Shown here: piece after piece, positions 3,592 to 64,000 of the stretch | Layout: each line of letters begins with the position of its first letter | Position numbering within the stretch: the first letter of the stretch is position 1 | From: Vibrio sp. 16 | GTDB lineage: Bacteria > Pseudomonadota > Gammaproteobacteria > Enterobacterales > Vibrionaceae | Direction of reading: 5' to 3' | NCBI RefSeq assembly: GCF_963681195.1 | Contig: NZ_OY808997.1 | Span: 1,550,001-1,614,000, forward strand | DNA: 64,000 bases | Notes under the pieces: generated by a model | Told to the model about the DNA's origin: nothing | Seen by the model: only the letters and a program-made list of their open reading frames with translations | Databases searched by the model: none | Position numbers and translations under genes: made by a program

Positions 3592-3846
3592 AGGCACTCC
3601 TTATTTTGTTACATAGTCATTACAATATGATGAATTATTGAATAAACCTCAATATTGTATTCAATGAACTTTTTATGACATTACACCAAGTACTTTGAAA
3701 TGCTGCCCATGAACAACATATGAACTCGATCACACAACAAGTGCGAACCTATTCATTTTTCTTAATTTAATCTCTACGTACAACGCCTTCCCATTTTAAC
3801 GTCTTATACTAATTGAATAACAACAACAGTCTTGCTAGGAGCGTTA

Positions 3847-5844
3847 ATGAATACTTTAATTCACAGGTTTAGCCTTAATCACTTAGTGCTATTTCTTGCA
3901 GGGATACCCATTCTTATCTCGCTATCGCTGGCGGTAGAGTTAGTCCTCAACTATCGAACTACCTTAGAAAACGCCAACAGCGACAAGTCTGCGACTGAAT
4001 TGATTTTACTTTATGACAATCTTGCCCATAACCTTGCGGTCGAGCGTGGTCTGAGCGCCGGTGTGTTGGGTAGTAAGGGTAATCCTGAGCAAGTGAAGGC
4101 TCTGATTGCTCATCGTAAAAAGGCCGATCAACACGTTCAAAAATTAATGTCATTCTCTGACGACACTTTGCCACTCCCTTGGCAAACCAAGCTTAAATCA
4201 GATGTCGCCAATGAACTGGCGAAGTTGAATGAGGTACGTCGTCAGGTCGATACTCTCTCACCTAAGTTGTCTCCGTTTGGGTACTATTCCAACTTGAATC
4301 AGTTGTCAATTGATAACGCGTCTATCATCAGTGGCGAACTATCGAACCCAGAGGTTGTCAGCCTAAGTAAAAGTCTGATCGCCGTCATGGAGATAAAAGA
4401 AAGAGCGGGTCAGGTCCGAGGCGCTCTAAACGGTGCTTTTTCTCGCAAAAATTCAACAATAGGGCAATATGTTGCCATCCAAAACTATCTAGCATCTGGC
4501 GACTATGCTGCGCGACAAGCCAAGATTACGCTTCCAAGTCACCTCCTAGACCAGTTGACAAGAGCCAAACAACAACAAGCTTGGCAATCAGTTGAAACGA
4601 TCCAACAGCAATTTCTCGACCAGAAAGGTACACTCGCTGCGCTTACCGGACCAGAGCCATCGGCTTGGTTTGCTATGGCGACGGATAGAATTAAATTAAT
4701 TAACGCTATCCGCAACGGCATTAAGGATCAGATGGTCGTGATTTCAGATAACCAAGCTGACAGCGCGGCCTTTAACATGAGCCTGATTATTGCTGCTGCA
4801 TTTGGGATCAGCACCATACTCATGTTTGGCGTTTTGATCTCAGTACGCGGGCTCCGCCAGCAAGTCAATATGGTGACAGGCAACCTTTCCAACATGTCCA
4901 ACCAACGTAACCTCAGCATACAGTTGCCTGATACGGGAAATAACGAGTTGAGCCACATATCTCAAAGTGTTAATGACCTGACAAAAAGTATCAAAAAACT
5001 ACTAGGCAGCATCAGAGAAACCAACGACCACAGTAACGAGCGCTTGGACCATATTGTTAAAGGTGCAAGTGATTTGGGCGATAGCAGCCGAAAGACCAAT
5101 GATAAATGCAACAACATTGCCACAGCGATGACACAACTTTCTCAGTCTAGCCTTGAAATCGCTTCCTCTTCAGAGCGAGCACTTCGGGAAACAGAGCAAA
5201 TGACCAACAAGGTATTGAGTTGCCAGTCCCAAAGCCGTAACTCTTATCAAAGAGTCGAAGCCTTAGTTTCACAAATAGAGCAGACTCAAGAGTGCATGGC
5301 CAAACTCGAAAAAGATGCACAGAGTGTCAGCAAAATAGTCGACACCATCAATGGCATATCTGAACAAACCAATCTCTTGGCCTTGAATGCCGCAATAGAG
5401 GCGGCACGAGCAGGCGAACATGGCCGAGGTTTCGCTGTAGTTTCTTCTGAAGTGCGCGATTTGGCACAGCGAAGTAAAGAAGCAACCGAGCATATCTCTC
5501 AACTGCTGGGCAACATCACCACTAACACGCAGACGGCAGTTAGTAATATGCATAAAAGCCGTGAGGCCACTGATGCAACTTTCACTTCCGTATCTGATGT
5601 AAATGAGAGCATTTCACAACTCGAACATCTCATTGAAACCGTAAATCAACACATAACTAGCATCGCCAATTCAACAACGGAGCAATCCAAAGCGAGTGAA
5701 GATGTTGATAAAGATATCGATGTTCTGGCGGAAATTGCCTTAAGGACAGGAGAACTTGCAGCGAACATGGATAGTATTGTCACAAACTATAAAACTGAAG
5801 TAGCCCAAGTTCACGATCAATTACAGGAGTTTAAGTTGGCGTAG
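3847..5844 (+). CDS. Methyl-accepting chemotaxis protein with NIT sensor domain
   Basis: Chemoreceptor of 665 residues. It has TM1 near 8-30, a long helical periplasmic domain (about 40-300) with the [13 protein letters not shown] signature of nitrate/nitrite-sensing NIT domains, TM2 near 305-330, a HAMP region, and a cytoplasmic coiled coil. The conserved hairpin tip ([20 protein letters not shown]) is intact, so it should couple to CheA/CheW. ATG at 3847 is chosen over an upstream TTG at 3832 because AGGAG lies five bases before it. It is monocistronic and ends at a strong hairpin. Ligand (nitrate/nitrite) is inferred from the family only. Conserved C-terminal receptor pentapeptide for CheR/CheB docking is not seen. 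Confidence 0.93.
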
Positions 5845-5879: not shown

Positions 5880-8423
5880 TTAATCTAGAATAAATTGTAC
5901 TGCATCAACATACCGTCCAGAACTCCAAACATTGATCTCTTCAAGCTCTTCACCCGAAGGAATTTCAACAATATCTGTTTTCTGAGAATGGGCATAATGC
6001 TTTGATCCATAAAACAGGACAGTTCCATCATGATAGGTAAACGTCAGTGCAACGATATGATTTCCACCCCAGTAAAACGTGCCTGAAGTTACTTCAATTT
6101 TCGCTACCTTTTCTAAGTCAACAGGGATACCAAGAACACCACCTGGTCCGCCAACCATTTCGTCATCATCTTCGCCTAAAGCATCGATCATCCAGCCAGA
6201 TCGTACGTAAAGCTCATCATCCAAATCTACGTTGGTAGGCTTACCTGTTGGGAAACCGATGATGTCAGTACCTGTACCCTTCTTCGTCGGTAATGTACTC
6301 GAACGATACGTATTGTGCGTCAACCAACTAGGCTCATACTTGCTAGGAATAGCACCTTCTTGCGTGATGTTCGATTGATGGAAAGAATGTTGGTTCCAAA
6401 TTCGAGTAGCGTTTTTCCAAGGCTTGTTAAGATCCGCGGACTTAAATACGTATACGCCATGGTTGAACGAGTATCTTGAGTCGTAGTCATTAGCAACAAC
6501 AATAAGTTCTGCATTGTTGTCACCAGCTAAATCCGCGACAACCGGTGACTCCCACAACGTGCCAGTCGAATTTGTAATTTCATTTAGCACAAGACCACTT
6601 CGACCATCTAAGATTCTTACTCGCATATGATCCTGAACAAGTACCTCATCAATACCATCGCCATCAAAATCATAAGCAGATACGCCTATTTTGCCACTAC
6701 TTGAGTCATCGTTAGGTACAGACCAAACCAATTGCCCAGTACGGTCGTACATATCTACGGCGTTGTAACCAGCGTACACGATACCAGTACTGTTAATTGA
6801 CTGTGCCGAAGTAAGTTCAAACTGCAAAGCCTCAACTAACCAGCCATTTGACCAAACATTCACCGCGCTGATTTCGCTGTCTTGCGGAACATGGAAATAA
6901 TCCGTTTGCTGCCAGAAAGATGAATTCTTGGACCCAAACATCTCCGTAGTTCCATCATTCATAAAGAATTTCAATGCCAATAAGTGTTTACCGCCCCAAT
7001 AATACTTACCCGAAGTAATGGCTATTTTACGTACCTCAGTAAGGTCTACGGGGCTATTAGTGTGGCCACCATTCCCACCAAATAAATTTGTCGGTGTTGT
7101 ACCAACCGCATCGATAGCCAGACCAGAGTTTACGTACAACAAGCTGTCATTACCCACAGCTAAGCGCTTATCATCACCATACTCGAAGCCAAAAAGATCT
7201 GATTCCTTCACTACGGTTTCAACAGGGTATCCCAAGAAATTGGAAACAGCTTGCACTCCTCCACCAGGGTTACTTGTATTATTTACACTCCATTTGACGG
7301 TCCCATCATGTTCTAAAACGGAGATGAAACTGTTTTCAGATGTGGACTTGGAAGCTGGCGACGAAACAATTAATTCAGGGCTAACATCGCTATCTAGATT
7401 CGCGACAGAAGAAAACCAAACCTTACTCGCTGATTGATGGTTCCAAATCGCCCCACCATTTCTGTCAAATAGAGTTTGATCGGCAAATACTTCTTGTTTT
7501 CCGTCACTATCAAAATCGATAGATATAGGGGAAGGCGTCCAAGCATAACTAAATAGTGACAGACCAGAGTCATAATTATAGACACCATCTGGTGCAATAA
7601 TTTCGACAGTCCCATCGTTATTCAAATCTGCAATACTAACTTGTCCAATAGTACGGCCACCCGTCTGGTTTTTGTCAATTTTTTTCTTCAGGTTACCTGC
7701 GTTATCGAGAACGTTGTAGTGGGTACTTCCTCGATTGCTGGTAATGATTTCGACAATTCCATCTCCATCGAGATCACCAGCTGCTACTGAATACCTCGCA
7801 TCGGCAATAACACCACCGTTGCTGTAATCCCAAATTTCACTGCCGTCGACACCACTCAGCGCACGAACTAATCCGCCGTCGGTATATTGATTATCCTCAA
7901 ACGTAATGACGATAATATCCGCAGTATCTTGGTTATCTATACTTCCATCGTTGTTATCATCGTTCAACTGCACAACAACCGGAGAAACAATCACTTGGTC
8001 ATATTCCGGCATGAAGCTGCTTCCTTGCCAAGACCAAGCCAATACTGGTTCGACTTCAGGAGAGCGAGAAACAACTCGCATTGAACGAGGTGCAGAGAAG
8101 TCTAGTACTTTACCATTATATGCTTTTACAGCTTCTAGTTCTGAATTGGGAGTATAACCAGTAAAAACCGCCAAACGGTTATAGGATAAATTGTCCCAAT
8201 CACTAAGCATCACCCCTGCGCCGGCACCAGCATAAACATCAACTTCATGTTCATAAATAAAAGAGGGGAGAGAATAACCTGAGCGCTCCCCTACGTTTAA
8301 ACAGTATTTATCTCCAGTTTCTTTGCTAACAATACAACCTACACCTTCTTCAGCAGAAGCAAAAACCGTCATTGAGTTCAACGATATTAACACTGCTGTC
8401 AGGGAAATATATTTGTGTTCCAT
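5880..8423 (-). CDS. Secreted RbmC/Bap1-like biofilm matrix protein (beta-propeller with two beta-prism lectin domains)
   Basis: Secreted protein of 847 residues. A signal peptide (1-24, cleavage after FASA) is followed by a small betagamma-crystallin-like segment (about 29-90, with DWDNLSYNRLAVF). FG-GAP/VCBS-type calcium loops mark a beta-propeller at 217, 266, 303, 343, 585 and 631 (DLDGDGIVE, DFDGDGIDE and similar). Two jacalin-like beta-prism domains lie at about 428-537, inserted within the propeller, and at 736-846 at the C-terminus; both carry the matching blocks YYWGG/FYWGG and NVWS-G. This order is that described for V. cholerae RbmC and Bap1, which glue biofilm cells to each other and to surfaces; the function here is inferred from that. 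RBS AGGAAG. A 26-bp palindrome lies about 85 bp upstream. Confidence 0.88.
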   Translation of the reverse strand: MEHKYISLTAVLISLNSMTVFASAEEGVGCIVSKETGDKYCLNVGERSGYSLPSFIYEHEVDVYAGAGAGVMLSDWDNLSYNRLAVFTGYTPNSELEAVKAYNGKVLDFSAPRSMRVVSRSPEVEPVLAWSWQGSSFMPEYDQVIVSPVVVQLNDDNNDGSIDNQDTADIIVITFEDNQYTDGGLVRALSGVDGSEIWDYSNGGVIADARYSVAAGDLDGDGIVEIITSNRGSTHYNVLDNAGNLKKKIDKNQTGGRTIGQVSIADLNNDGTVEIIAPDGVYNYDSGLSLFSYAWTPSPISIDFDSDGKQEVFADQTLFDRNGGAIWNHQSASKVWFSSVANLDSDVSPELIVSSPASKSTSENSFISVLEHDGTVKWSVNNTSNPGGGVQAVSNFLGYPVETVVKESDLFGFEYGDDKRLAVGNDSLLYVNSGLAIDAVGTTPTNLFGGNGGHTNSPVDLTEVRKIAITSGKYYWGGKHLLALKFFMNDGTTEMFGSKNSSFWQQTDYFHVPQDSEISAVNVWSNGWLVEALQFELTSAQSINSTGIVYAGYNAVDMYDRTGQLVWSVPNDDSSSGKIGVSAYDFDGDGIDEVLVQDHMRVRILDGRSGLVLNEITNSTGTLWESPVVADLAGDNNAELIVVANDYDSRYSFNHGVYVFKSADLNKPWKNATRIWNQHSFHQSNITQEGAIPSKYEPSWLTHNTYRSSTLPTKKGTGTDIIGFPTGKPTNVDLDDELYVRSGWMIDALGEDDDEMVGGPGGVLGIPVDLEKVAKIEVTSGTFYWGGNHIVALTFTYHDGTVLFYGSKHYAHSQKTDIVEIPSGEELEEINVWSSGRYVDAVQFILD

Positions 8424-8507: not shown

Positions 8508-8533
8508 TCAATAATGAGACATCTCATTATTGA
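8508..8533. promoter_or_regulatory. 12-bp-arm palindrome upstream of the matrix protein gene
   Basis: TCAATAATGAGA and its exact inverse TCTCATTATTGA are separated by two bases (CA). It lies 85-110 bp before the start codon at 8423. There is no T-run, and it sits in the upstream region rather than after a gene, so an operator is more likely than a terminator. The binding protein is unknown. Confidence 0.55.
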
Positions 8534-56433: not shown

Positions 56434-57423
56434 TTAGCCGCCGATAGACGCAAGATGTGGCGTCATACCGGAGTTTCCATCGTGCAGGAAGTGACTGACG
56501 GATTTTGTTTGTAACTGTTCTTGGATGCGTTGAATCAACGCATCTTCTTGTGAGTCTTGCTGAAGAAGGTCGCGTAACTCAACGCCATGATCGCCAAACA
56601 AGCATAAATGCAGCTTACCCTTAGCGGAGACCCGAAGTCGGTTGCAACTCTCACAAAAGTCTTTTTCGTAAGGCATGATCAAGCCAATCTCACCTTGATA
56701 ATCTGGGTGGACAAACACTTGAGCGGGCCCATCGTTGTTCGCGCGAACCTTCAGAAGCCAACCGTTCGCAATCAGTTGATTACGAATCGCTACGCCAGAA
56801 ACGTGGTGCTTGTGGAACAGTTCATCCATCTCCCCGGTCTGCATCAGTTCGATAAAACGCAGTTGAATTGGACGATGTTTGATCCAGTTGAGAAAGGCGG
56901 GCAACTCATTGGCGTTGAGATCTTTCATCAACACGACATTGACTTTGACTTGTTCGTACCCGACTTCAAACGCGCGATCAATCCCCGACATCACTTCAGA
57001 GAATTTATTCTCACCCGTAATTTGATAGAACATGCGAGGATCTAAGCTGTCAACGCTGACATTAATGTGCGTCAGCCCAGCTTGCTTCCAGTCAGCGACC
57101 TGCTTTTCCATCCGATAGCCGTTTGTCGTCGTCGCGACTTTGGTGATACCGGGTGTTTCAGACACCGTATGGATAATATCGTTGAAGTCTTTGCGCAGGC
57201 TTGGCTCACCACCAGTGATGCGGACTTTTGACGTACCACAATCGGCAAACGCGCGAACGACGCGCTTAATTTCAGGTACGGATAAAAAAGACGAGTTTTT
57301 CTGCCCCGATGGTTTATAGCCATCAGGCAAGCAATATGTGCATTTAAAGTTACAAACGTCAGTAACGGAAAGACGCAAGTAATAAAACTTGCGATGAAAT
57401 TTATCTTCGAATTGTTGCGCCAC
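56434..57423 (-). CDS. moaA: GTP 3',8-cyclase MoaA
   Basis: 329-residue radical-SAM enzyme, exactly the E. coli length. SAM cluster Cys24, Cys28 and Cys31 in [18 protein letters not shown]; a second cluster with [20 protein letters not shown]-terminal Gly-Gly. GTG at 57423 matches the E. coli N-terminus (MASQL... versus MAQQF...); the frame runs further into the riboswitch and is not coding there. First gene of the operon. Confidence 0.97.
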
Positions 57424-57424
57424 G

Positions 57425-57535
57425 GAACACCTTTCCAAACACGGGAGGCAACGTCATTTCCAACCTTGCCCTTGTGACAACTTGTCACTGGCTCTACACG
57501 CTTATTTATTTACAAACTTAGCCCGCAGAGCTCGG
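57425..57535 (-). ncRNA. Moco RNA (molybdenum cofactor riboswitch)
   Basis: The moaA leader, read on the minus strand, holds GGGCAAGGTTGGAAATGACG, TTGCCTCCCGTGTTTGG and AAAGGTG in the order and spacing of the E. coli moaA leader, with a preceding CCGAGCTCTGCGGGC arm. It ends just before the GTG start, so it should govern translation of moaA. The 5' boundary is approximate. Confidence 0.88.
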
Positions 57536-57726
57536 AGTTATGGCAACTGGTTCGCGTAATATGTACACCACCAGCAGCTGTCGAGTAAAATACTTAATAT
57601 TCGTGCGTGTTTCTACCCTCGAGGTCAAAAAAACATGCACGTAACTCAAAATACCTCGTTTTGAGTATCTCCTATTAATACAATATTCTAAATTGTAGTT
57701 GGTTATAAAAAAATAAGACGAAAATA

Positions 57727-58614
57727 ATGACTTTGTATTCAAGCAAAAAAGTGGTGGCGATCGGCGGTGGGCATGGCCTTGGTCGTATTCTTGCGGCTTT
57801 AAAAGACTTCGGCGAGAACGCAACGGGAATCGTTGCAACCACAGACAACGGCGGCTCTACTGGCCGAATCCGCAGCTGCCAAGGCGGCATTGCATGGGGC
57901 GATACGCGTAACTGCATCAATCAGTTGATTACCGATCCTTCCATCAGTTCAATGATGTTTGAATACCGTTTCAAAGGCTCTGGTGAACTTGACGGCCACA
58001 ATTTGGGTAACCTCATGCTCACCGCATTAGACAACTTATCAGTGCGTCCTCTCGATGCCACAAACCTAATCCGCAACATGCTCAAAGTGGATGTCAATAT
58101 CATTCCGATGTCTGAACATCCTTCAGATTTAAAAGCGCTATCGACGGAAGGACACTGGGTGACTGGCGAAACCAGTGTTGATGAGATGCCGGAAAAATTG
58201 GTTAGGCTTGATTTGGAGCCAGAAGTCCCTGCGACAAAAGAAGGCGTGATCGCCATTGAGCAAGCGGATGCCATTATTCTCGGTCCGGGCAGTTTTTTGA
58301 CCAGTATTATGCCGCCATTGCTCCTGTCAGAAGTTGGTCGCGCGATCGCCAACAACAAGAAAGCTCAGCTTATATTCGTTGAGAACTTATCGCCTGAATT
58401 CGGCCCCGCCGGTAAAATGAGTTTGCGTGAAAAACTGGAATGGTGCGAGCGAGCCTGCCAAGGCCGACAGATAGACGTGGTGCTAGGCGAAGAAGCGCAC
58501 CCTGAACTAGAAGAGTGGAACTGTGTCACCACACCGCTCGCTTCACCCAATCGGGACTGGCGTCATGACCGAGACAAACTGCATGACGCTATTGATGCCT
58601 TACTGAGAAACTAA
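57727..58614 (+). CDS. ybhK: YvcK/YbhK (CofD-like) UDP-sugar-binding protein
   Basis: 295-residue CofD-fold protein. IGGGHGLGRILAALKDF at the N-terminus, TTDNGGSTGRIR, DGHNLGNLMLTAL and ILGPGSFLTSIMPPLL. The family binds UDP-GlcNAc-type sugars and affects carbon use and cell shape. Divergent from moaA as ybhK is in E. coli. Its last 15 bp overlap the end of luxU on the other strand. The RBS is weak. Confidence 0.93.
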   Translation: MTLYSSKKVVAIGGGHGLGRILAALKDFGENATGIVATTDNGGSTGRIRSCQGGIAWGDTRNCINQLITDPSISSMMFEYRFKGSGELDGHNLGNLMLTALDNLSVRPLDATNLIRNMLKVDVNIIPMSEHPSDLKALSTEGHWVTGETSVDEMPEKLVRLDLEPEVPATKEGVIAIEQADAIILGPGSFLTSIMPPLLLSEVGRAIANNKKAQLIFVENLSPEFGPAGKMSLREKLEWCERACQGRQIDVVLGEEAHPELEEWNCVTTPLASPNRDWRHDRDKLHDAIDALLRN

Positions 58615-58941
58615 ACGCTGATAGTGCGATTCGGTTTCACTCAGTAGGTCAATCATCTTGTCTCGGCTACTGTTTGGGTCAAACGATTGACCGGCTTTTG
58701 CCATAGAATCCAACTCTATGGCATAAGCACACAGCACCTCAGCCCCAAAGCTCGCAGCACTACTTTTGAGTGCATGACTGATCTCTTTTAGATAAGACAC
58801 CACATCCAAGCTCGCATCATCAGTCAGCTTGCTTTTGTACTGGGCCAGCTCGCCTAAGAATATATCAAGGAGAATGGGGACATTGTCCGCGCCAATCTCG
58901 CTGGCCAAACGCTCAATTTTCTCTTTGTTTAATACATCCAT
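58600..58941 (-). CDS. luxU: Phosphorelay protein LuxU
   Basis: 113-residue HPt protein of the vibrio quorum-sensing relay, passing phosphate from the LuxQ/CqsS/LuxN-type sensors to LuxO. Begins MDVLNKEKIERLASEIGADN; phosphoacceptor His56 lies in SHALKSSAASFG. Starts 5 bp after luxO's stop, so it is co-transcribed. Its 3' end overlaps ybhK by 15 bp. Confidence 0.97.
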   Translation of the reverse strand: MDVLNKEKIERLASEIGADNVPILLDIFLGELAQYKSKLTDDASLDVVSYLKEISHALKSSAASFGAEVLCAYAIELDSMAKAGQSFDPNSSRDKMIDLLSETESHYQRLVSQ

Positions 58942-58946
58942 GATAA

Positions 58947-60341
58947 TTACTGTGTTTCCTTCAAATTCCATGATTGCAGCTTGCGATAGATGGTCGATGG
59001 ACTGACATCCAAATAGCCCGCCGCTTTAGGGATATTGCCATCACATGCCTTAATAGCTTGCTCAATGGCTCGCTTTTCCGTTAACCAAAGTGGGAAAATG
59101 TCTTGCACTGAAAACTCATCAGACACAGGCAAATCAACCCGAATTTGGTTCTCCGTCGGTTTGTTTAATGGCGGAGGCAACATAGACAAATCAATTTCCT
59201 TGCCATTATTGAGCACCACAACATTACGCAACACATTTTGCAATTGGCGCACATTTCCTGGCCACTCGTAGCTGGCAAATCGATCTACTACCTGCGGAGA
59301 TAAGCGGACGAAATCCTTACCTTCTTCTTTTGACATAAAGCCCAGCAGCGAATAGGCAATTTCAATGATGTCGTCACCGCGCTCGCGCAATGGGGGTAAG
59401 TGAAGCGGGATAACATACAAACGGTAGTACAAGTCTTCCCTAAAACGCCCCTCCTCCACTTCTTTCCAAGGGTCACGGTTGGTCGCGCACACAAAACGAA
59501 CATCCACGCTTTTCATTTTAGACGATCCCACCTTCTGGAAGGTGCCTGTCTGAATAAAACGCAAAAGCTTGGTCTGTAAGTCGAGATCCATTTCACACAA
59601 CTCATCAAGAAACAGAGTTCCGCCATCGGCCAGTTCAGCCGCTCCTTGACGATCGGTCGCGGCACCGGTAAATGCCCCTTTAACGTGACCGAACAGTTCA
59701 CTTTCAATCAAGTCTTTTGGAATCGCAGCACAGTTAATCGCGATAAACGGTTTATCACCGCGCTTGCTGGTTGCATGGATCGCTTCTGCACACACCTCTT
59801 TACCCGTACCACTCTCACCGGTGATGAAGATACTGGCTTTACTCGACGCCGCAGAGTCAATGGTTCGATAAACCGCCTGCATTGTCTGACTACTACCGAT
59901 AAACCCTTGATAGCCCTGGTTACCTGGATAGTCAGCCTCGTTTTTCAACTTACTCGCTTTGCGTAATGCATTGTTGACGGTGACACGCAGTCGGTCGGCT
60001 TCACAGGGCTTAATTAAGAAATCCTGTGCGCCGTGACGCATCGCCTCTACCGCCGTATCGATAGAGCCATGCGCGGTCATAAATACAACTGGCACGTCTG
60101 GGTTTTTCTTTTTCACCGCGTAAAGTACATCCATCCCTGTCATATCGGGAAGACGCAAATCAAGGAGAATAAGGTCGGGGGTTCGAAAGTTAAGGCTTTC
60201 GATTGCATCCCGTCCTGTACCGACAATATTGATGTCGATGCAAAGCGGGGTTAGATAGGAACGATAAAGAGCCGCGACAGACGCGGTATCCTCAACCATC
60301 AGCAAATATTTTGCGTTCTGATTATCTGTGTGTTCTTGCAT
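58947..60341 (-). CDS. luxO: Quorum-sensing sigma54 response regulator LuxO
   Basis: 464-residue NtrC-family activator. Receiver domain with phosphoacceptor Asp61, AAA+ domain with Walker A GESGTGKE near 175 and the sigma54-contacting GAFTGA at 222-227, and a Fis-type helix-turn-helix at the C-terminus ([21 protein letters not shown]). At low cell density phosphorylated LuxO activates the Qrr genes. Divergent from qrr1; the leader contains TTGGCTAGG, complementary to Qrr1. First gene of luxO-luxU. Confidence 0.98.
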
Positions 60342-60390
60342 AGCCTAGCCAATTATTATTTTGCAATTTGTTAAATGATTGCATTGCGCT

Positions 60391-60403
60391 TTGCATTTTG
60401 CAA
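60391..60403. promoter_or_regulatory. LuxO binding site upstream of qrr1
   Basis: TTGCATTTTGCAA is a perfect match to TTGCA-W3-TGCAA and lies about 100 bp before the qrr1 start. Partial copies (TTGCAATTTG at 60361 and TTGCATTGCG at 60380) sit beside it, suggesting a second, weaker site. Confidence 0.85.
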
Positions 60404-60464
60404 ATTGATTGGGCTATTTTGGCAAAAATTAGTAGGAATTTGGATGAATCACGCACAATATTTG

Positions 60465-60480
60465 TGGCACGGTATCTGCT
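60465..60480 (+). promoter_or_regulatory. Sigma54 promoter of qrr1
   Basis: TGGCAC (-24) and TGCT (-12) are 6 bp apart, matching TGGCAC-N5-TTGC, and lie 11 bp before the RNA start at 60491. Confidence 0.9.
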
Positions 60481-60490
60481 AAAACTACTA

Positions 60491-60586
60491 TGACCCTCAT
60501 GGGTCACCTAGCCAACTGACGTTGTTAGTGAATGTATTATTCACAAATTACAGCCAATAGATACTTTATCTATTGGCTATTTTTTT
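60491..60586 (+). ncRNA. qrr1: Quorum-regulatory small RNA Qrr1
   Basis: About 96 nt. Starts TGACCCTCATGGGTCACC (first hairpin), then the target-binding block CCTAGCCAACTGACGTTG, an AT-rich linker and a terminator hairpin AGCCAATAGAT/ATCTATTGGCT followed by T residues. All match the vibrio Qrr1 plan. It acts with Hfq on luxR/hapR-type and aphA mRNAs; here it also pairs with luxO. Confidence 0.95.
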
Positions 60587-60601
60587 ATCTTGATAAAACC
60601 G

Positions 60602-62632
60602 TTAACTGTTGGCGATAAATTGCTGACGCAGTTTTTCGATCTGATCGCGCTTTTCTGCCGCCAATTCAAACTCCAGGTCTTGTGCATGTTGATACATTTG
60701 CGCTTCTAGTTTGCTGATCTCTTTCTCAAGCTGTTGTGGTGTCATGACATCATAACGTTGTGACGATTCCGCTACCTTCGATAACGGTACCGCTTTACTC
60801 ACACGCTGCTTCTTACTCTTGGTGATATCACCGAGCTCCATGATGTCTTTAATGTTGCGTTTCAGAGCTTGTGGTTCAATGCCCATTTTTGCATTGTATT
60901 CCTGCTGCTTCTCACGACGGCGATTGGTCTCATCCATCGCTTTCTTCATCGATTTGGTGATCGAATCCGCGTACAGGATCGCTTTACCACTGACATTTCG
61001 CGCAGCACGACCAATGGTCTGAATTAATGACCGTTCGGAGCGAAGGAAACCTTCTTTGTCGGCATCTAGGATCGCAACTAAAGACACTTCCGGCATGTCC
61101 AAGCCCTCACGTAACAAGTTGATGCCGACCAAGACATCGAACTCACCCAGGCGCAGGTCGCGGATAATTTCAACACGCTCAACCGTATCAATATCAGAGT
61201 GGAGATAGCGCACTTTCACATCATGTTCCGTAAGGTACTCAGTCAAATCCTCCGCCATACGCTTAGTGAGTGTGGTAACCAGAACACGCTCATCTTTAAC
61301 AGAGCGAATTCGAATCTCAGACAACAGGTCATCAACTTGGGTTGCCACAGGGCGCACTTCTAATTCAGGGTCAAGTAAGCCAGTAGGACGAACCACCTGA
61401 TCAGCGATCTCGTTGTCAGATTTTTCCAGCTCATAATTACCGGGCGTCGCTGAGACAAAAATGGTTTGCGGAGCAATAGATTCAAACTCCTCAAACTTCA
61501 TTGGTCGGTTATCAAGTGCCGAAGGTAGGCGAAAACCAAACTCTACCAAGGTCTCTTTACGAGAACGGTCACCTTTATACATGGCGCCAATCTGTGGCAC
61601 GGTGACGTGCGATTCATCGATGATTAGAAGGCCATCATGAGGAAGATAGTCAAACAAAGTCGGAGGCGGCTCTCCCTCTTTGCGCCCACTCAAGTAACGA
61701 GAGTAGTTTTCGATTCCAGAACAAAAACCGAGTTCGTTCATCATTTCTATATCGAACTGAGTACGCTGTGAGATCCGCTGTTCTTCAAGCAGTTTGTTGT
61801 TTTCTAGGAGATACTTTTTACGTGACTCCAATTCGACCTTGATGTTTTCAATCGCATCTAGAATCCGGTCACGTGGGGTTACATAGTGGGTCTTCGGGTA
61901 AATAGTGAAACGTGGTAAATCGCGCTGTTTTACCACACCGGTCAGTGGGTCAAAAATGCTAATGCAGTCAATTTCATCATCAAACATCTCAATACGAACC
62001 GCATCTTGATCCGATTCTGCAGGGAAAATGTCGATCACCTCTCCCCTAACGCGAAATTGACCGCGCTCAAAGGCAACATCATTACGACTGTATTGGAGCT
62101 CTGCAAGACGACGCAAAATATCGCGCTGATCTAAAACATCACCGCGACGAATATGCAGCATCATTTGCAGATACGCTTCTGGATCACCCAAGCCATAAAT
62201 CGCGGAGACCGACGCAACAATAATGGCATCTTTTCGCTCGAGCAGTGCTTTGGTGGCAGACAAACGCATCTGCTCAATATGTGCGTTTACTGAAGCGTCT
62301 TTTTCAATGAAGGTGTCTGTTGTTGGGACATAGGCTTCTGGTTGGTAATAGTCGTAATACGAGACAAAGTATTCAACCGCATTGTGAGGAAAAAATGATT
62401 TCATTTCCCCATACAGCTGCGCTGCTAGCGTTTTATTCGGTGCTAAGAGAATGGCTGGTCGTTGCGCTTTGGCGATCACATTCGCTAAAGTAAACGTCTT
62501 ACCAGACCCTGTTACCCCGAGCAAAGTTTGGTGGGCTAACCCTGAATCTAAACCTTCTAGCAACTGATTGATGGCGGTCGGCTGATCACCCGATGGCTGA
62601 TAATCCGATACCAATTCAAATACTTTACCCAT
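60602..62632 (-). CDS. uvrB: Excinuclease ABC subunit B
   Basis: 676-residue UvrB of nucleotide excision repair. Walker [14 protein letters not shown], beta-hairpin [35 protein letters not shown], and the C-terminal UVR domain ([24 protein letters not shown]). ATG at 62632 (MGKVFELVS) has GAGG six bases before it. A perfect LexA box lies 45 bp upstream, so it belongs to the SOS regulon. Confidence 0.99.
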
Positions 62633-62676
62633 AGACACCTCGGCCCTATCCACTTTTCATCAATCCATTATTGTGA

Positions 62677-62692
62677 CTGTATAAATATACAG
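62677..62692. promoter_or_regulatory. LexA (SOS) box of uvrB
   Basis: CTGTATAAATATACAG matches the LexA consensus CTGT-N8-ACAG perfectly, 45 bp before the uvrB start. Confidence 0.93.
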
Positions 62693-63133
62693 AAACAATA
62701 GCTGAGGAAAAAATATCTCGCTGTTTTAATAAATTTGTACTGTGATCGCTAGATCATCAATTTCAATCCTGTTACTATCTTCCGCCCTAGCAGAGACCAC
62801 TTCTCAAAAAGCCTTTCAAATAGCTCACAAGTTATTCACATTTTCCCGCAACATCACTTGATCACAGAAATGATCCACTCGATCCAATTTAGTCACCAAA
62901 TGACTAAAAATTAACCTGACGCTTTATTATACAACCGGTTACAAAATGATCTTTATTGATTATTTTTAGACTTAATACTCTACAAATCGATTGTTTATTA
63001 ATTGCTCAAGTTTAATTAACATAGTTATCCACAATTTTGGTGGATAAGTAAATCTAGCCTTTGTCTGATAAGGGCTACAAGAAAGTAAAGTTTTTTATTA
63101 CGCAAAAAATCATCATTCACAGCCTATTTAGTA
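62693..63133. other. Long AT-rich gene-free region between uvrB and tRNA-Asn
   Basis: About 440 bp with no credible gene. A dyad TTTAGTCA-5-TGACTAAA lies at 62888-62908. Several GATC sites cluster near 62750-62885. No RNA fold was recognised. Confidence 0.4.
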
Positions 63134-63162
63134 TTGACAGGGTCAAACTGGATCGTTAAGAT
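63134..63162 (+). promoter_or_regulatory. Promoter of tRNA-Asn
   Basis: Consensus -35 TTGACA, 17-bp spacer, -10 TAAGAT, then a GC-rich discriminator (GCCCCGC) typical of stringently controlled stable-RNA promoters. Confidence 0.85.
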
Positions 63163-63181
63163 TCGCCCCGCTTAAAGCAAT

Positions 63182-63257
63182 TCCTCCTTAGCTCAGTTGG
63201 TAGAGCGACGGACTGTTAATCCGCAGGTCGCTGGTTCGAGCCCAGCAGGAGGAGCCA
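63182..63257 (+). tRNA. tRNA-Asn (anticodon GTT)
   Basis: 76 nt with encoded CCA. Acceptor TCCTCCT/AGGAGGA; anticodon loop CTGTTAA reads GTT; T-loop GGTTCGAGCCC. Confidence 0.97.
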
Positions 63258-63266
63258 GATTTAGAG

Positions 63267-63296
63267 AAAAGCCCAATCGAGAGATTGGGCTTTTTT
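63267..63296 (+). terminator. Terminator after tRNA-Asn
   Basis: 12-bp stem AAAAGCCCAATC/GATTGGGCTTTT, GAGA loop, T-run. Confidence 0.93.
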
Positions 63297-63505
63297 CGTA
63301 TTGATGGCGTTTACAACCTAAGTTCGATCGCGCTACACCCATCTGATAAGCATCGACGACCCTCTCTATCGATATTTCGTGCGACTTTTTGCCACCAAAT
63401 CCGTATAAATTTCACTCAACAGCATAAAACCTTATCTTTCCTTGGTTGTTATTGGCTTGGCAAAGCACGATAATATCGGGATCGGAATTTCTCAAATAAA
63501 TAACT

Positions 63506-64000
63506 ATGACCGAATATCTTTTGTTGTTGGTAGGCACTGTCCTAGTAAACAACTTTGTACTGGTGAAGTTTTTGGGCTTATGTCCATTTATGGGCGTGTC
63601 AAAAAAACTGGAAACAGCAATCGGAATGGGGTTAGCGACAACGTTCGTTTTGACCCTCGCCTCCGTGTGCGCCTACCTTGTTGAAAACTACATTCTAGCG
63701 CCTCTTGGTCTTCAATATCTCAGGACCATGAGCTTCATTCTAGTGATTGCTGTTGTCGTACAGTTCACGGAAATGGTGGTCCATAAAACCAGCCCAACAC
63801 TCTACCGCTTACTGGGGATTTTCTTACCCCTTATCACGACCAACTGTGCGGTTCTGGGTGTCGCGTTACTCAATATCAATGAAAACCATAACTTTATTGA
63901 ATCCATCATTTATGGTTTTGGTGCTGCGGTGGGATTCTCGTTAGTGCTGATTCTGTTTGCTTCCATGCGTGAACGTATTACCGCGGCTGACGTACCCGCT
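63506..64000 (+). CDS. rsxA: RsxA/RnfA electron-transport complex subunit (cut by window edge)
   Basis: First 165 residues of a subunit of the membrane ion-pumping Rnf/Rsx complex, which couples NADH-ferredoxin chemistry to Na+ or H+ movement and helps reset Sox[21 protein letters not shown] begins the first of several helices; [19 protein letters not shown] and [17 protein letters not shown] are conserved. The frame stays open to position 64000. The remaining rsx genes lie beyond the window. Confidence 0.95.

What the first reader, a model, noticed from the sequence alone, without database searches (positions are those of the whole stretch)
5880..8423. RbmC/Bap1-like biofilm matrix protein with a split propeller and two beta-prisms
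The 847-residue protein has a signal peptide, one betagamma-crystallin-like segment, FG-GAP calcium loops on both sides of a first beta-prism lectin domain, and a second beta-prism at the C-terminus. That inserted-lectin layout is known for V. cholerae RbmC and Bap1. It differs from RbmC in having one rather than two crystallin-like units at the front, and from Bap1 in having two prisms without Bap1's long adhesive loop. It may be an intermediate member of the family with its own glycan specificity.
Basis: partly seen in the sequence, partly recalled or inferred. Interest (0 to 1): 0.72.

Follow-up and report, generated by a model that had tools for sequence, protein, structure and literature searches.

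The report
Third lineage of Vibrio biofilm adhesins
This marine Vibrio gene encodes a secreted-looking sticky protein, related to the cholera bacterium's biofilm adhesins RbmC and Bap1, that probably ties the bacterium's own slime polysaccharide to host sugars; its slime-gripping part may change along with the slime type, which can be tested.

Summary

It is probably not an intermediate: read with prism-less propellers as outgroup it branches before the RbmC/Bap1 split (98/94; AU p 0.02, but 0.07 with fewer outgroups). Prism 1 keeps the N-glycan pocket in 8 of 8; prism 2 has lost its Trp-Leu pair in 8 of 8. All eight lack RbmA and a close VPS cluster but have a related, variable EPS locus. An upstream palindrome is shared with rbmC promoters.

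Between the two genomes of this species the gene's ends are 97.7-99.7% identical, but propeller plus prism 1 is only 77% identical, evidently replaced; the EPS glycosyltransferase block differs too. The propeller may track EPS type; few comparisons support this.

The parts
5880..8423 (-). one-M, two-prism RbmC-like adhesin gene (847 aa)
   Evidence: ORF and translation; Pfam and PDB matches; model and Bap1 match
8355..8423 (-). putative signal peptide, about residues 1-23
   Evidence: hydrophobic N-terminus, by eye; no predictor run
8067..8354 (-). M domain (betagamma-crystallin type, like the StcE X409 mucin-binding module), residues 24-119
   Evidence: Crystall_4 8.9e-42; StcE module 9grj/9grf/9gsm E about 3e-30
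7224..8063 (-). propeller, first part, residues 121-400
   Evidence: 6mlt match 119-711; 6mlt and 6tjg
6801..7223 (-). beta-prism 1 inserted in the propeller, residues 401-541, canonical N-glycan pocket residues except Leu at the Phe850 place
6288..6800 (-). propeller, second part, residues 542-712
   Evidence: 6mlt match; domain map
5883..6287 (-). beta-prism 2, residues 713-847, altered pocket (Trp at the Phe850 place; Trp948-Leu949 replaced by Arg-Tyr)
   Evidence: 4gx7 708-846; pocket columns; clade with RbmC prism 2 domains 97/95
8509..8532 (.). conserved upstream palindrome (core TGAGA-NN-TCTCA at 8515-8526), 91 bp before the start codon
   Evidence: core exact in 8 of 8 one-M loci; shared with rbmC promoters; exact in 0 of 3735 background pieces
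6414..8048 (-). segment (codons 126-670: propeller plus prism 1) that differs between the two genomes of this species as if replaced
   Evidence: 376 of 1635 nt differ, against 1 of 375 and 12 of 531 on either side; dS 1.0-1.5 against 0.01-0.08

Best explanation
A secreted biofilm-matrix adhesin of the RbmC/Bap1 kind, working as 'double-sided tape': the propeller holds the bacterium's own exopolysaccharide, and the outward parts (one mucin-binding M domain, prism 1 with an N-glycan-core pocket, prism 2 with a changed pocket) hold host or surface glycans. It is most likely a third lineage beside RbmC and Bap1, at its own chromosomal site in eight genomes of the genus, with an rbmC-type upstream palindrome, and the only propeller adhesin found in each of those genomes. 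Those genomes have no close V. cholerae-type VPS cluster but a related, variable EPS locus, so the propeller most likely binds that local polysaccharide. Shown here by computation: domain content, fold, locus, pocket residues, palindrome, EPS locus without rbmA, mosaic allele; the lineage with good but not full support. Inferred: secretion, EPS binding, glycan binding, regulation by a biofilm regulator.
For: Domains and fold. For V. cholerae, VPS binding by the propeller, N-glycan binding by RbmC prisms and mucin binding by M1M2 are in print (PMC10102183, sections 6, 7, 9, 11 read; PMC5825169, passages). Prism 1 pocket kept in 8 of 8. All 25 propeller carriers among 227 genus genomes have a VpsM homologue at E <= 1e-50, against 68 of 227 overall (hypergeometric 2e-15; cut-off chosen after seeing the list, kinship not corrected for). 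One propeller gene in each of the 8 genomes. Palindrome core: 8 of 8 one-M loci exact; 13 rbmC-type loci: 6 exact, 6 with one mismatch, 1 with two; background of 3735 random pieces: 0 exact, 48 with at most one mismatch, 629 with at most two, so the two-mismatch case tells nothing. PMC9785129 (passages) reports, citing other work, an RbmC protein in the secretome of a V. coralliilyticus mutant.
Against: No assay of a one-M protein was seen in the passages read. The gene lies outside any EPS or rbm cluster. The palindrome was not found (within two mismatches) in 497 bp before the window genome's own EPS operon, nor before vpsL or rbmA in L043. The root rests on long outgroup branches (p-AU 0.072 with three rows left out). 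The M-domain tree does not decide whether one M is ancestral (AU p 0.16-0.35).
Confidence: 0.8

Rival explanations
1. It is simply the RbmC orthologue, placed outside the vps region, that has lost one of two M domains; its basal place in the tree is an artefact of the distant outgroup.
For: Same two-prism layout; prism 2 of all lineages in one clade (97/95); rbmC-type palindrome; p-AU 0.072 with trimmed outgroup.
Against: 98/94 and 98/93 support for RbmC plus Bap1 without the one-M clade in the two trees; p-AU 0.020 with all outgroups; a different locus in 8 of 8.
Confidence: 0.3
2. A secreted lectin that targets or decoys host glycans and no longer works with exopolysaccharide.
For: No RbmA and no close VPS cluster in the 8 genomes; the gene stands alone; prisms of this kind also occur on a cytolysin.
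Against: Many invariant propeller residues across 21 proteins; 25 of 25 carriers have a VPS/CPS-type VpsM gene; Pfam shows no catalytic or pore-forming domain.
Confidence: 0.12
3. One reading: an intermediate between RbmC and Bap1.
For: The domain count lies between the two.
Against: Holding one-M with Bap1 apart from RbmC has p-AU 0.020; no 57-residue loop; Bap1 prisms lie on a separate long branch.
Confidence: 0.04

Closest known systems
RbmC (VC0930) of Vibrio cholerae
   Same: Propeller split by prism 1, C-terminal prism 2, N-terminal mucin-binding M type domain, shared upstream palindrome; 55-59% identity to seven two-M proteins
   Different: One M domain, not two; prism 2 pocket altered; locus outside the vps/rbm region; no RbmA and no close VPS cluster in the genome
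Bap1 (VC1888), structure 6mlt
   Different: Bap1 has no M domain, no second prism, a 57-residue loop and another locus
RbmC homologues of V. tubiashii and V. coralliilyticus named in PMC10102183, section 11
   Same: The copy in V. tubiashii T33 found here (L033) is a one-M protein of this clade at this locus
   Different: The section names them as RbmC homologues and does not mention a single M domain or an altered prism 2; its supplementary figure was not seen
Prism-less propeller proteins (L053 with a Pfam pAdhesive_15 domain) of Vibrio and other Vibrionaceae
   Same: Same propeller family, 37-62% identity per matched segment; in G160 and G006 within about 20 kb of a VpsL-like gene
   Different: No prism, no M domain found; L053 has an N-terminal ice-binding-like adhesive domain instead
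StcE X409 mucin-binding module
   Same: M domain 57-59% identical (E about 3e-30)
   Different: In StcE it sits on a mucin protease (PMC8249670, passages); no protease domain here

Membership tests
RbmC | propeller split by a beta-prism | tested here: met
RbmC | second, C-terminal beta-prism | tested here: met
   prism 2 clade 97/95
RbmC | two tandem N-terminal M domains | tested here: not met
   one M in 8 of 8
RbmC | N-glycan pocket residues in prism 1 | tested here: met
   equivalents of Asp853, Tyr894, Trp896, Trp948, Leu949 in 8 of 8
RbmC | N-glycan pocket residues in prism 2 | tested here: not met
   Asp853 and Trp896 kept, Trp948 and Leu949 lost in 8 of 8
RbmC | gene in the rbm/vps region | tested here: not met
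   chemoreceptor/DUF2913 neighbourhood in 8 of 8; no RbmA in 8 of 8
RbmC | groups with RbmC to the exclusion of Bap1 | tested here: inconclusive
   best tree says no (98/94); p-AU 0.020 and 0.072
RbmC | propeller binds VPS | not testable with these tools
   needs a binding assay
Bap1 | 57-residue loop in the prism | tested here: not met
Bap1 | single prism and no M domain | tested here: not met
RbmC and Bap1 | secreted | tested here: inconclusive
   N-terminus looks like a signal peptide by eye; no predictor run

The most novel reading that the evidence does not exclude
The adhesin's propeller is a swappable, polysaccharide-type-specific plug: when a strain exchanges its EPS glycosyltransferase block, the propeller segment of the adhesin is exchanged too, while the M domain and prism 2 stay. 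In the two genomes of this species both blocks differ while their surroundings are nearly identical; G068/G069 share the EPS block and have an evenly conserved adhesin; G218/G024 share most of it, and their propellers are about 14 points more alike than either is to G219, whose block differs.
Probability: 0.3. Interest if true: 0.78.

Novelty: new variant of a known kind. Interest (0 to 1): 0.5.

Why it matters
How matrix adhesins recognise their own strain's slime is, as far as I know, open; a species with one conserved VPS cannot show whether grip and polysaccharide co-vary. This lineage pairs a single propeller adhesin with a variable EPS locus, so the question can be tested with two strains of one species. 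It also gives natural variants of a mucin- and N-glycan-type adhesin in marine vibrios (some relatives are known from shrimp, shellfish and coral; general knowledge), including a prism that keeps the sugar-binding Asp but not the Trp-Leu pair.

Tried and rejected

Against the EPS-coupling reading: in the two-M pair G011/G104 prism 1 is only 65.7% alike although the M domains are 96.9% alike, so this segment is exchanged elsewhere too; whether their EPS differs was not tested. Gene-content differences between G000 and AD048 are common: 86 of 1092 pieces of 164 kb had no counterpart in the AD048 stretch, so an EPS block difference in the same pair may be coincidence. Divergent tracts (under 90%) are rare: 32 of 1092 pieces, in two places, this gene with the edge of its neighbour, and C1 1510-1514 kb, not followed up.

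Rows dropped: rbmC copies broken by apparent frameshifts (L047/L018, L051/L022) and L054 (Bap1 without an ATG before the propeller) were left out of the trees; L017 (ends at a contig end) was kept for propeller, M and prism 1. One search left out the first codon.

Literature: Yang et al. 2025 (mSystems, PMC12090793), on Vibrio biofilm matrix clusters and proteins, is cited in PMC12965690 (passages) but is not held. I have not read it and it may already describe one-M proteins; I recall, from no call, that its abstract speaks of modular changes in RbmC and Bap1. What I say about novelty covers only the searches and the sections and passages named.

Full report

WHO HAS IT. Of 227 genomes of the genus (one per species held), 38 match the protein somewhere and 25 carry the propeller (sorted by the part of the query matched; two of the 25 have a broken rbmC). 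Eight of the 25 have the one-M, two-prism form: the window's genome G000, and G143, G020, G069, G068, G218, G219, G024. Contig lengths tie G143 to V. sinaloensis AD048, G020 to V. atypicus DSM 25292 and G219 to V. tubiashii T33; the tool calls G143 the same species as G000. In all eight the gene has DUF2913 on one side and folD further on; a NIT-type chemoreceptor gene is on the other side, whole in seven and reduced to remnants in AD048; SelO follows in seven of eight, not found in G218's stretch. G105 has chemoreceptor, DUF2913, folD and nupC in the same order with no adhesin and 49 bp between chemoreceptor and DUF2913, so the gene is a single-gene gain or loss there. The rbmC genes of the other species lie in other surroundings, the vps/rbm region in L043, and bap1 lies near mfd in L054; calling G092 V. 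cholerae-like rests on gene order and recall.

LINEAGE. A propeller tree of 37 rows, read with eleven prism-less Vibrionaceae propellers as outgroup, gives a one-M clade (100/99) sister to RbmC plus Bap1 (98/94). Grouping it with RbmC alone, or with Bap1 alone, lowers the log-likelihood by 12.7 (p-AU 0.020 each); without three long outgroup rows the branch has 98/93 and the first alternative p-AU 0.072. Prism 2 domains of all lineages form one clade (97/95), so two prisms most simply predate the split and Bap1 lost one. The M-domain tree is undecided. 'Third lineage' is the better reading, not a certainty.

POCKETS. In the RbmC prism 2 structure the sugar is held by Asp853, with Phe850, Tyr894, Trp896, Trp948 and Leu949; in the related cytolysin prism, changes at the Asp, Leu and Trp equivalents cut activity (PMC5825169, passages). 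In the one-M proteins prism 1 has Asp, Tyr, Trp, Trp, Leu in 8 of 8, with Leu at 850. Prism 2 has Asp and Trp896 in 8 of 8, Trp at 850 in 8 of 8, Tyr, Phe or Ile at 894, Tyr for Leu949 in 8 of 8, and Arg, Gln, Ala, Asn or Asp for Trp948. The other RbmC-type prisms in the alignment (23 of 23 rows outside the one-M and Bap1 groups) keep Trp948 and Leu949. So the two prisms should not bind the same glycan equally.

POLYSACCHARIDE. RbmA was found in none of the eight one-M genomes and in 14 of the 25 searched. Their best VpsL match is 49-56% and their best VpsM match 33-35% identical to the proteins of L043, side by side in one locus; in the 15 other genomes with RbmC or Bap1, VpsL is 76-100%. In G000 the locus lies on C2, about 988.5-1008.6 kb, outside the window: VpsL-, M-, N- and O-like genes, a UDP-sugar dehydrogenase, a WecG-type and a Wzy_C gene, and others not named here. 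All 25 propeller carriers have a VpsM homologue at E <= 1e-50, against 68 of 227 genomes (cut-off chosen afterwards; not corrected for kinship).

PALINDROME. All eight one-M genes have TGAGA-NN-TCTCA, core beginning 102-106 bp before the start codon. Of 13 rbmC-type loci scanned (two-M, no-M two-prism, and two broken copies), 6 have the core exactly, 6 with one mismatch and 1 with two, 183-219 bp upstream. Of six bap1 loci none is exact, two have one mismatch, one has two and three have none (one of these had only 153 bp). Two prism-less loci have none. Of 3735 random 450-bp pieces, 0 are exact, 48 have at most one mismatch and 629 at most two (the pieces are mostly coding, so a fair control only in part). 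The genome has six exact cores in all. This ties the gene to rbmC by ancestry or regulation; the regulator is not identified, and the window genome's EPS promoter lacks the core.

A MOSAIC GENE. Between G000 and AD048, codons 1-125 differ at 1 of 375 bases, codons 126-670 at 376 of 1635, codons 671-847 at 12 of 531; synonymous divergence is 1.0-1.5 in the middle domains and 0.01-0.08 in M and prism 2. In the middle the two strains are about as far apart as each is from V. atypicus. Across 164 kb of the same chromosome only one other place has tracts under 90% identity. So the propeller with its prism was most likely replaced by recombination in one of the strains; an assembly error in AD048 was not excluded. 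In the same pair the EPS locus is 97-100% identical at VpsL, M and N and again at a 159-residue gene and the Wzy_C gene, but between them VpsO is 83% and ten of the next eleven genes of G000 have no counterpart in AD048, the eleventh 43%. Other close pairs: G069/G068 share the EPS block (70-99%) and show no mosaic (propeller 92.7, M 94.8, prism 2 91.1). G218/G024 share most of it (63-97%; one gene of G218 has no counterpart; G024's stretch ends at a contig end), and their propellers are 85.8% alike, whereas each is 72% like G219, whose block is different, although M (87.6 against 84.5 and 89.7), DUF2913 (90 against 88 and 88) and prism 2 (79.4 against 75.0 and 76.5) differ little. The propeller-minus-ends difference is -15.5 for G000/G143, the lowest of 28 one-M pairs (next -10.7), and -7.5 to +4.8 in 16 two-M pairs. 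G011/G104 is a warning: prism 1 is exchanged there too, and their EPS was not examined; and gene-content differences between G000 and AD048 are common (86 of 1092 pieces). The association rests on three close pairs and one trio.

HOW IT LIKELY WORKS. By analogy with V. cholerae, where the propeller binds VPS, RbmC prisms bind N-glycans and M1M2 bind mucin (PMC10102183, sections 6, 7, 9, 11), this protein is exported, docks on the local EPS by its propeller and exposes the M domain and prisms to mucus, glycoproteins or other cells. The altered prism 2 may serve another sugar. This paragraph is inference.

KNOWN OR NEW. RbmC homologues in V. tubiashii and V. coralliilyticus are in print (PMC10102183, section 11). 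What the sections I read do not state is the single M domain, the altered prism 2, the separate locus with an rbmC-type palindrome, the different EPS locus and the mosaic propeller. A 2025 mSystems paper on these proteins could not be read. I rate it a new variant of a known kind.

Noticed in passing
L053 8206-10365; also L052, L079-L085: Propellers of the same family without a prism; L053 has instead an N-terminal Pfam pAdhesive_15 (ice-binding-like adhesive) domain: another outward module on the same anchor (only L053 was scanned with Pfam).
   Followed up: partly
L061, L062, L063, L088, L089: Proteins with two or three tandem mucin-binding M domains and no propeller, in this genus and others of the family.
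   Followed up: no
G282:C32:48867-50168 and G301:C2:38273-39574: The propeller also matches inside open frames of over 3600 residues in another genus of the family.
   Followed up: no
L048, L049, L050: Two-prism RbmC forms with no M domain, each with an RbmA gene on the same 20-kb stretch.
   Followed up: partly
L047/L018 (G091) and L051/L022 (G100): rbmC copies interrupted by an apparent frameshift; described only.
   Followed up: no
window 3651-5750 against L031: The NIT-type chemoreceptor gene beside the adhesin is reduced to remnants in V. sinaloensis AD048.
   Followed up: no
G000:C1:1510001-1514350: The only other place with divergent tracts between the two strains in 164 kb; genes not identified.
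   Followed up: no
window 57051-63950: About 6.9 kb at the end of the window has no counterpart in the AD048 stretch compared; a strain-specific piece or the end of that stretch.
   Followed up: no
L046 and L017 (G011, G104): In two close two-M genomes prism 1 is only 65.7% alike while the M domains are 96.9% alike: a second case of exchange in this segment.
   Followed up: partly
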